Shown piece by piece: positions 32,000 through 34,160 of a stretch of DNA of 37,668 nucleotides (its first letter is position 1; each line of letters opens with the position of its first letter). The position numbers were made by a program, and so were the translations under genes. This DNA comes from an uncultured Clostridia bacterium (GTDB taxonomy: Bacteria; Bacillota; Clostridia; Christensenellales; Borkfalkiaceae): positions 1 through 37,668 of the forward strand of contig CALVWV010000025.1 of NCBI GenBank assembly GCA_944368065.1. Reading direction: 5' to 3'. The notes below the pieces were generated by a model. The model saw only the letters and a list, made by a program, of their open reading frames with translations. It was not told the DNA's origin and ran no database searches.

Positions 32000-32360
32000 A
32001 TTTAAAACCCCGATTTTTAATAACGATTTTTTATAATCCGTATAAGTTTTACTAATAATTTATGATTTTGAGCAAATTTTAGCCGTTTTTGGCAAAAATT
32101 AAGCCATTTTGATTGGCGGCTTTTGATTATATAATACATAAGTTGTACTTATTGCACAAAAAGTCTCTTTGAAATTTTTACCGAAATACGCGGGTTAACG
32201 TGCTTTACGCAGGCATATGCGCTGATAAAGCGGAATTACTTTTTTGCATTTGCAATTCAGGCTTGCGTTTACTGCTTTGCGGGAACCCTCGGCAGTGCGG
32301 CGGCAATGTGTGCCTTGCTCGAACCGCGGCGCTCTTTCCTACCCTCTCTCTGCGCCGCAC
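32000..32360. other. Gene-free region upstream of gdhA
   Basis: No gene is supported. It holds a 15-bp palindrome (ATAAGT-TGT-ACTTAT, 32138-32152) next to a TATAAT on the plus strand (32130-32135) whose best -35 is at a poor 15-nt spacing. This might be an operator. Cys-rich open frames on both strands near 32200-32400 overlap each other and the small RNA unit and look spurious. Confidence 0.5.
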
Positions 32361-32439
32361 AAAAAAAGGCACCGCAATGGTGCCTGTGTGTGGCTTTAGA
32401 GGATAAAAATGCTACCCTGCCATTTGCCCCACAAACTAT
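32361..32439 (-). ncRNA. Putative small RNA of about 80 nt
   Basis: A consensus-like promoter (32446-32474) is followed within 90 bp by a clean intrinsic terminator (AGGCACC / GGTGCCT, loop of 5, then seven T bases), with no open frame of note between. Transcription should start near 32439. The transcript can form an inner hairpin AGGGTA / TATCCT (loop GCATTTT) inside a near-perfect outer stem GTTTGTGG / CCACACAC, ahead of the terminator hairpin. I do not recognise a known family. It is independent of the recombinase genes, which have their own hairpin at 32501-32529. It could belong to the chromosome or to the mobile element. Confidence 0.6.
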
Positions 32440-32445
32440 GCGTAT

Positions 32446-32474
32446 ATTATAGCAAGGTTTGTAAATGCCGTCAA
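32446..32474 (-). promoter_or_regulatory. Promoter of the putative small RNA
   Basis: TTGACG (32469-32474), a 17-nt spacer and TATAAT (32446-32451) on the minus strand. Confidence 0.75.
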
Positions 32475-32500
32475 TGATTTGCTTGCCTGAGCACATAAAG

Positions 32501-32529
32501 AAAGCGAGCCGATTTTTTCGACCCGCTTT
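32501..32529 (-). terminator. Terminator after the recombinase genes
   Basis: A 12-bp stem with two G-T pairs on the minus strand (AAAGCGGGTCGA / TCGGCTCGCTTT, loop of 5 A) lies 4 bp past the last recombinase stop. The following T content is modest (CTTTAT). Confidence 0.6.
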
Positions 32530-32532
32530 TAA

Positions 32533-34160
32533 CTACTCTACCACCTCGGTTACGCTCAATCCCCCTTTTAAGTAAATAACGATAGACTTGTCTTTCATCA
32601 CCCTTATAAGACCCACAAGACGCCTGATCATAATGTCATCGTATTGACTGAAACAGAGTTCCGTATTCGTCAGCGTTTCTCTGATTTCATCTATTTCGGC
32701 TTTAAGGCTTGGATTGGCAGCAATCTTTTCTCTTTTTGCTTCGAGCTGTTCTTGTAATATTGCAATCTTGTCGTTCAGTTGTCGGATCACATCAATGTAC
32801 TTACTTTTATCCCCCTCCGTGCTGTTCAGGTGCTGCACATTGTCATCGACCTGCTGCCTCAGATACCTTATTTGATTTTCTATTGTGTCGGATTCCAAAA
32901 CATCGTCCTCTCCCGTCATGACGCACGAGAGATTAGAGATAATCATTTCCAAGACATCCTCTTTGTTTTCAAGCAGTCGCGTTAATCCTCGGCAAATTGC
33001 AACGTGCAATTTGGTTTCGTCCAAAGCCGGGGCTGTGTGCAGAATTTCTTTCCGTGCTCTACCCTGCTCAAACATCGCCAGACTTTTCTGCTTACGCCAT
33101 TTTTCACCCAAGTCACTCTCTTATACGGGCTGCCGCATTCGCCGCAGACAAGCAGTTCTGAAAGTGAAAATTTTCCGCTGTACTTTCCGAGAGAGGTAAT
33201 GCCTTTATCCGATGTCTGACGCTTACCTCTGCGACGAGCCATTTCGCGTTGCACTTTTTTGAACATTTCCGAACTGACGATGGGAACATGATTGTTGGCA
33301 ATAAAGTATTTAGCCATCTCGCCGCGGTTCTTTTTCACCTTTTTCGTTATACAGTTTTCGGTAAAGGTTTTTTGCAAAAGCATATCGCCGCAATACCGCT
33401 CATTCGTTAATATATTGGAGATGACGTTAAATCCCCATTGAGACTTTCCTTTCTTGGTCGGTATATTGTTCTGCTCCAAATACTCCTTGATCTGTTTGAC
33501 GCTGTAACCGCTCAAATACAAGTTATAAATTTTTAAGACGATTTCAGCTTCTTCTGGAACGATTTCAGGCTCTCCGTCTTCCCCTTTCCTATAACCTAAT
33601 ATATTATATCGAAAGGCGAACGTCCCGGCTCGCATACGTTGTTGCAATCCCCACCGCACATTCGCGCTTATATTTTCGCTTTCAGCCTGTGCCATGACAC
33701 TGTACAAACCGACAAACATTTCGCTGTCGGCAGTCAAAGAATTCAGGTTTTGCTCCTCGAAAAACACACCGATTCCGAGAGCTTTCAATTTGCGGACATA
33801 GCGCAGGCTATCTACGGTGTTACGCGCAAAACGCGAAAACGATTTTGTCAGGATAAGGTCAATTTTTCCTTTCTCGCAATCGCGTATCATTTTTATGAAC
33901 TGTTCACGTTTTTTGGCAAGTGTTCCCGTAATGCCTTCGTCTGCGTATATCTTCACAAACCGCCATTTCGGATTTTTCATGATGGCTTCCGTGTAATGGG
34001 CAACCTGCGCGTTGTAACTTTCGATTTGATCTTCACTGTCCGTCGAAACGCGGCAATAAGCCGCAACACGCAAAACACCATTCTCTGCATTCCTTTTCTG
34101 TAAGAGCGGATTGGCGTCTATTTTTGTAACTATTCTCTTCGACTGCGCTTGCTCATACAT
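32533..34160 (-). pseudogene. Large serine recombinase 1, frameshifted
   Basis: The first frame (34160 to the TGA at 32982) encodes a resolvase domain with catalytic Ser39 in YCRVSTDSEDQ, the YADEGITGT and SFSRFARN motifs, a recombinase domain (IPTKKGKSQWGFNVISNILTN) and three Cys of a zinc ribbon (LLVCGECGSPY, WRCLSRVEHGKKFC). At base 33039-33041 the reading frame breaks. The expected continuation HTAPALDETKLHVAI is in the neighbouring frame, which runs on to 32533 and contains the coiled coil and C-terminus. One missing C explains the shift. The ATG at 34160 has GGAGG 7 nt upstream. Its start overlaps the end of recombinase 2 by 31 bp. Intact length would be about 542 aa. A sequencing error is possible. 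Confidence 0.88.

What the first reader, a model, noticed from the sequence alone, without database searches (positions are those of the whole stretch)
32361..32474. Unannotated small RNA gene between gdhA and the mobile element
A TTGACG-17-TATAAT promoter and a clean intrinsic terminator enclose only about 80 nt with no meaningful open frame. The transcript can form a nested hairpin plus the terminator stem. Neither gdhA (own promoter about 470 bp further on) nor the recombinases (own hairpin upstream) need this unit. Promoter, terminator and pairing are seen directly. That it is a functional RNA is inference.
Basis: partly seen in the sequence, partly recalled or inferred. Interest (0 to 1): 0.7.

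Follow-up and report, generated by a model that had tools for sequence, protein, structure and literature searches.

The report
Promoter end of a mobile cassette
The supposed small-RNA gene is most likely two unrelated pieces side by side, the promoter-bearing tip of a small mobile DNA element and a stop signal already present in the host, so it is probably not a conserved bacterial small RNA but points to a family of jumping cassettes, some of which seem to carry anti-virus or toxin-antitoxin genes.

Summary
In detail: on the minus strand a TTGACG-17-TATAAT promoter with extended -10 (32474-32446) and an intrinsic terminator (32385-32367) enclose about 80 nt. It is probably not a host small-RNA gene. 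Promoter and first ~49 nt (32499-32391) recur in eight further copies, 81-95% identical to the window, and homology between copies stops at one base (...AAAGCCA), except in a decayed copy (6-10 nt short). Immediately beyond it each copy has different DNA. Left of the block the copies carry different cargo: recombinase remnant, AAA/DUF4143 ATPase, or DUF2442-HTH with a DUF4160-like gene. So this is the right end of a mobile element; the terminator belongs to the target site and here resembles a tRNA-Ser terminator of congeners. The last 26 bp are shared with many other insertions: 34 of 37 such ends are followed by an intrinsic terminator (203 of 1500 random positions). Three insertions clearly sit between a tRNA's CCA and its terminator; some others carry PtuA-like or candidate defence genes. 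The hairpin shows no covariation, Rfam has no match at its cut-off, and three relatives of the neighbouring recombinase lack the block. Most likely an outward promoter makes a short RNA ending in the host terminator; its role and the mobilising enzyme are unknown.

The parts
32391..32499 (-). Right-end block of a mobile element: promoter plus first ~49 nt of the predicted RNA, ending ...CCTCTAAAGCCA
   Evidence: Eight further copies with different cargo and flanks, 80.8-94.5% identical to the window over 104-110 columns
32446..32474 (-). Outward sigma-70-type promoter TTGACG-17-TATAAT with extended -10
   Evidence: for chance. In A1 TGC before the -10 is kept in 9 of 9 copies, TTGACG in 7 of 9 (TAGATG in G544, TCAACG in G479), TATAAT in 7 of 9 (TATAAA in L108, TATTAT in G524)
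32391..32416 (-). 26-bp terminal sequence (REP26, my name) shared with other insertions
32367..32385 (-). Intrinsic terminator of the host target site (T-run continues to 32361)
   Evidence: other copies have other sequence here. Window 32342-32409 matches the region at the 3' end of tRNA-Ser in G056 at 76%, E 1.3e-6; that match reaches 19 nt into the element end
32342..32371 (+). Probable relic of a tRNA-Ser 3' end (CCCTCTCTCTGCGCC...) reading towards the terminator
   Evidence: 93% match to the tRNA-Ser 3' end and following sequence of G002; ARAGORN finds no tRNA here
32361..32439 (-). Predicted ~80-nt RNA, element 5' part joined to host 3' part (expression not tested)
   Evidence: Inferred from promoter and terminator; fold
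32501..32529 (-). Hairpin after the recombinase gene; the recombinase segment abuts the block near 32499
   Evidence: 97.6% identity to G131:C40 over 996 nt ending at AAAGCCA
32533..34160 (-). Large serine recombinase, frame interrupted (392-aa and 192-aa overlapping frames)
   Evidence: the homologous stretch in G131 is one continuous frame that lacks the N-terminal part

Best explanation
The unit is a chimera. The promoter and the first ~49 nt are the right end of a small mobile element, which ends in GGTAGCATTTTTATCCTCTAAAGCCA at 32391. The terminator belongs to the host site, just upstream of which the element end lies. Shown: the block recurs next to different cargo and different flanks with a fixed right boundary; the same 26-bp end occurs on many other insertions; these ends nearly always sit just before an intrinsic terminator. 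Inferred: the outward promoter makes a ~80-nt RNA that the host terminator stops, so it does little to the neighbours while integrated. In a circular or tandem form the same promoter would read into the left end, where the terminator-like hairpins seen at several left ends would stop it. Not known: which recombinase moves the element, and whether the RNA has a job.
For: Nine copies align over the block (A1). Of the 28 pairs among the eight undecayed copies, 27 have a match ending 0 to +4 nt from the same base and one (G524 with G574) breaks off at -53/-57; matches of the decayed G030 copy end 6-10 nt short. Window and G131:C40 are 97.6% identical over 996 nt up to AAAGCCA and unlike just beyond it. 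Cargo differs: AAA_14/DUF4143 ATPase (G574; homologous at 93-95% in G544 and G479), DUF2442-HTH with a DUF4160-like gene (L108; homologous in G594/L134 and G524), recombinase remnant (window, G131) (Pfam was run on one member of each kind, DUF4160 is my recognition). The G574 and G030 copies lie on opposite sides of an acetyltransferase-like gene, in opposite orientation to it, and G479's lies beside the 3' end of a gdhA-like gene (gene names my recognition). Of 37 distinct right ends, 34 are followed by a terminator in the 75 nt scanned, 27 of them starting within 20 nt, against 203 of 1500 random positions and 2 of 24 chance-like pattern matches. Insertions between tRNA CCA and terminator: G200 tRNA-Ser, G699 tRNA-Leu, G231 tRNA-Arg.
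Against: No mobilising enzyme was found, and no empty site was compared for any copy; the window's contig ends inside the neighbouring mobile element. Left ends are not uniform, so the full element is not delimited for the promoter-bearing type. The window and G131 copies share the gdhA neighbourhood, with homology resuming 321 and 1788 nt beyond the end, and may be one old inherited insertion with a later change of flank rather than two. Two of nine copies have lost the -35, so the promoter may not be under strong selection. G030:C8 keeps only ~55 nt of the block without the 26-bp end. A tyrosine recombinase found near two right ends (L108, L262) shows no association: 5 of 13 genomes with the 26-bp end have it, 132 of all 396.
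Confidence: 0.8

Rival explanations
1. The element's right end encodes a functional RNA of the element, for example one that guides or assists recombination in the manner of bridge or omega RNAs, with the promoter kept for that purpose.
For: The promoter is retained in most copies and reads into the element's end. In some units whose cargo reads towards the end, the end lies directly behind the stop codon, so it could be transcribed without its own promoter (L142, L143; also close behind the ABC gene of L219).
Against: No covariation (0 of 10 pairs). Many units with the same 26-bp end lack this block, and in several a terminator-like hairpin (seen by eye) lies between the cargo and the end (L153, L218, L220). 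No partner enzyme was found.
Confidence: 0.12
2. A genuine small-RNA gene of the host.
For: Strong promoter, clean terminator, stable fold; the hairpin pairs 84.4% of cells against 41-54% when slid by 1-3 columns, as is expected of a fold derived from one of the rows.
Against: The 3' half and terminator are not conserved; flanks and cargo differ between copies; 0 of 10 pairs covary and pairing equals that of shuffles, 84.4% vs 85.0%; no Rfam match at gathering score; 21 of 93 genomes of the genus have any match at E<=0.05, and only the window's genome, G131 and G030 have long ones.
Confidence: 0.05
3. The promoter block is the natural end of the serine-recombinase element that occupies the right of the window.
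For: It abuts the recombinase gene directly in the window and in G131:C40. A serine recombinase also precedes a 26-bp end in G251, with a repeat in between.
Against: Recombinase relatives at 70-74% identity (G131:C8, G026, G018) have other sequence after the gene, and neither block nor end was found in the 18,000, 8,858 and 10,820 bases examined there. The block occurs with unrelated cargo elsewhere.
Confidence: 0.1
4. A leader or second promoter for gdhA with an attenuator.
For: Same strand as gdhA.
Against: gdhA has its own promoter-like site at 31999-31971, in a stretch also matched in congeners without a long match to the block, such as G002 and G015; in other copies the block lies beside other genes.
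Confidence: 0.02

Closest known systems
Non-autonomous transposable elements and MITEs
   Same: Short, no transposase seen inside the ones examined, conserved end with differing interiors, dispersed
   Different: No inverted repeat or target duplication was established; ends lie just before terminators; full genes are carried
Integron gene cassettes (attC)
   Same: One- or two-gene units, some with defence or toxin-antitoxin genes, with a conserved recombination-site-like end, in G379 two in tandem in one orientation
   Different: The shared end is 26 bp and does not show the attC core GTTRRRY (recalled); no integron integrase was searched for; insertions lie after tRNA CCA or before terminators rather than at an attI
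IS110 bridge RNA and TnpB omega RNA (recalled)
   Same: A noncoding RNA produced at an element end, if the RNA here exists
   Different: Their enzymes were not searched for as such; none is among the 17 proteins from the window and neighbouring loci scanned with Pfam; no conserved RNA structure
Integrative elements at tRNA 3' ends
   Same: Several ends sit directly at a tRNA CCA
   Different: Different tRNAs (Ser, Leu, Arg, Tyr) share only CCA at the junction by eye, so the long identity segment usual for tyrosine-integrase sites (recalled) is not apparent

Membership tests
Conserved small-RNA gene | Promoter and terminator bracket the transcript | tested here: met
Conserved small-RNA gene | Whole transcript, terminator included, conserved in relatives | tested here: not met
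   Homology stops 5 nt before the terminator stem
Conserved small-RNA gene | Compensatory changes in stems | tested here: not met
   0 of 10 pairs with both sides changed, 9 copies; few differences, so the test has limited power
Conserved small-RNA gene | Member of a described RNA family | tested here: not met
   No match at gathering score; weak ones only (best E 0.31, 19.7 bits against a cut-off of 50)
Mobile element end | Same boundary in copies with unrelated flanks | tested here: met
   27 of 28 pairs of undecayed copies end within 0 to +4; decayed G030 copy 6-10 nt short
Mobile element end | Terminal inverted repeats | tested here: inconclusive
   An inverted, related sequence follows the CCA of tRNAs in G030, G109 and G131:C8, but no complete element with both ends was recovered
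Mobile element end | Target duplication or empty site | not tested
   No occupied/empty pair was compared
Integron cassette | attC consensus and integron integrase | tested here: inconclusive
   Core motif not seen by eye; integron integrase not searched. One tyrosine recombinase tested showed no association
Serine-recombinase element | Block at the end of related recombinase elements | tested here: not met
   Absent in the stretches examined of G131:C8, G026:C61 and G018:C61

The most novel reading that the evidence does not exclude
Some uncultured Clostridia carry a system of small defence and toxin-antitoxin cassettes, moved in trans by an unknown recombinase that recognises the junction between a gene's 3' end (typically tRNA CCA) and its intrinsic terminator. 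Each cassette brings a terminator at its left end and a 26-bp CCA-ending site at its right end, so it can be inserted without cutting a gene off from a terminator and can be stacked; one lineage adds an outward promoter that makes a short RNA across the recombination site.
Probability: 0.3. Interest if true: 0.75.

Novelty: new variant of a known kind. Interest (0 to 1): 0.45.

Why it matters
It warns that a good promoter plus a good terminator can be an accident of insertion rather than an RNA gene. More widely, it points to a class of small mobile cassettes with a strong preference for the space before terminators, some carrying PtuA-like and candidate defence genes, for which I found no moving enzyme. 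If confirmed, the conserved 26-bp end would be a handle for finding cargo genes in uncultured bacteria.

Tried and rejected
Rfam on the window, the locus and 13 related loci: only tRNAs at gathering score. Searches of plasmids and phages with the locus or one relative: no match. Viral contig patterns gave 0, 2 and 2 contigs; no block was seen around the four matches. Coding potential: a frame through the block looked suggestive (some third-position changes), but stops and 1-nt indels in several copies (by eye) argue against a peptide. RNA-level function for all 26-bp ends: set aside as a general rule because in several elements a terminator-like hairpin lies between cargo and end. Serine recombinase as owner of the end: disfavoured. 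Tyrosine recombinase near L108 and L262 as the mover: no association. Papers: six searches, which listed 12 papers in all; I saw listings only, read none, and saw no title that described such an element.

My first structure string for the pair count was misplaced by columns (1 of 11 pairs with a double change); the corrected one is. RNAalifold on the whole block, promoter included, preferred another fold, with 1 of 25 pairs covarying. I did not count pairs for a second alternative fold, whose string was of wrong length.

The class of 37 right ends was set by a rule on the end sequence. It admits by hand three irregular ends (L220, L186, L219), includes one likely chance match inside a phage frame (L206) and two orthologous loci (L020, L021). 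The G574 and G030 copies did not fit the pattern and are not in it. Rows left out of A1: G030:C8 (55 nt only), G689 (no promoter) and the duplicate L210. Of the 70 stretches I printed 12. A loose test of all 70 fitted 6: L067, L077, L089, L108, L134 and L093, the last (Limnohabitans) probably chance and not inspected.

Full report
The finding. The promoter is 11 of 12 with an extended -10. Promoters of that quality are rare by chance (3 in the window, mean 0.01 in 100 simulations; promoter plus nearby terminator 1 against 0 of 100), although at loose thresholds such sites are not in excess. The RNA folds well. No Rfam family matches here at gathering score.

Relatives break it in two. In 101 genomes (own and relatives) the 141-base query matched 8 at E<=0.001, but different parts matched different places. 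The promoter half matched G030 (an uncultured Clostridia bacterium, CALVLX01). The terminator half matched sequence at the 3' end of tRNA-Ser in G002 and G056. A narrower query in 93 genomes of the genus found long matches in G131 and G030 besides the window's own. A 17-base pattern scan of genome contigs gave 70 stretches, of which L067, L077, L089, L108 and L134 carry the block or part of it. A sample of 301 genomes of the family had 14 with matches at E<=1e-4; besides the window's genome and G131, those in G594, G574, G544, G479 and G524 cover most of the block. G594 and G574 appear to be the genomes of L134 and L089.

A fixed end. Placed on a common coordinate, 27 of 28 pairs of undecayed copies have matches that end 0 to +4 nt from the same base...AAAGCCA; one pair (G524 with G574) breaks off at -53/-57, and the decayed G030 copy ends 6-10 nt short. 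Left of the block three kinds of sequence occur: an AAA_14/DUF4143 ATPase gene (G574, with homologous sequence in G544 and G479), a DUF2442-HTH gene with a DUF4160-like partner (L108, homologous in G594 and G524), and a recombinase remnant (window and G131, 97.6% over 996 nt). In L089 the ATPase gene reads away from the block and seems to have its own TTGACA-17-TATAAT promoter (by eye, and the sequence). Immediately right of the block each copy has its own DNA. Two copies sit on opposite sides of an acetyltransferase-like gene in opposite orientation (G574, G030). This is what insertion produces. The window and G131 copies share the gdhA-proA-proB neighbourhood, with homology resuming further right (gene names my recognition apart from gdhA of the window), and may be one inherited insertion with a later change of flank.

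A wider family of ends. The last 26 bases are found without the promoter on many other insertions: 13 of 396 genomes of the order at up to 1 mismatch. Of 68 distinct pattern matches collected, 37 are right ends, 7 are the inverted type, and 24 are chance-like. A terminator follows 34 of the 37, 27 of them starting within 20 nt, against 203 of 1500 random positions and 2 of the 24. Clear insertions lie between tRNA CCA and terminator: G200 tRNA-Ser, G699 tRNA-Leu, and G231 tRNA-Arg with one 481-aa gene. G379 holds two ends in tandem, 2.5 kb apart.

Cargo. Of 8 cargo proteins scanned against PADLOC, the G218 pair matched PtuA1/PDC-M01A (1.2e-162, 4.3e-183) and PDC-M01B (3.5e-71), the G574 ATPase PDC-S01 (4.5e-148), the G471 protein PDC-S31 (1e-45) and more weakly mad2; one had only weak generic matches and three had none. 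PDC models are, as I recall, candidate systems, so defence is suggested, not shown.

Not evidently an RNA family. In the alignment of nine copies conservation runs through the promoter spacer as well as the hexamers; TTGACG is lost in G544 and G479. Of 10 pairs of the predicted hairpin none shows a change on both sides, and 84.4% of cells pair against 85.0% in shuffles; slid versions pair 41-54%, as expected of a fold taken from one row. The neighbouring recombinase does not seem to own the block: three relatives at 70-74% identity have other sequence after the gene, and neither block nor end in the stretches examined. Against this, a serine recombinase also stands before a 26-bp end in G251.

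Conclusion. The unit is most likely the outward promoter of an element's right end, abutting a host terminator. Whether the ~80-nt RNA is made and used is open. The broader cassette family is the more interesting result, and its mover is unknown; one tyrosine recombinase tested is not associated (5 of 13 carriers, 132 of 396 overall).

Noticed in passing
window 32533-34160 (-): The serine recombinase frame is interrupted (392-aa and 192-aa overlapping frames); in G131:C40 the corresponding stretch is continuous but the N-terminal part is missing.
   Followed up: partly
L207 (G131:C8), L185 (G109), L067 (G030): A sequence nearly the reverse of the 26-bp end directly follows the CCA of tRNA-Ser, tRNA-Leu and tRNA-Tyr; a terminator-like hairpin follows it. 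It may be the left end of the same kind of element.
   Followed up: partly
L026, L027, L139, L140, L149: A ~125-bp repeat (AACCGAGGATAAGGGCGC...CTCGGTTTGG) with short inverted ends recurs after tRNA-like sequences or between 26-bp ends.
   Followed up: no
L226 (G479): A copy of the block lies beside the 3' end of a gdhA-like gene, while in the window it lies upstream of gdhA: possibly coincidence, possibly a hot spot.
   Followed up: no
window 32281-32365: Sequence next to the tRNA-Ser relic recurs at 74-82% identity in several congeners (G132, G029, G015, G039, G113), as another dispersed repeat.
   Followed up: no
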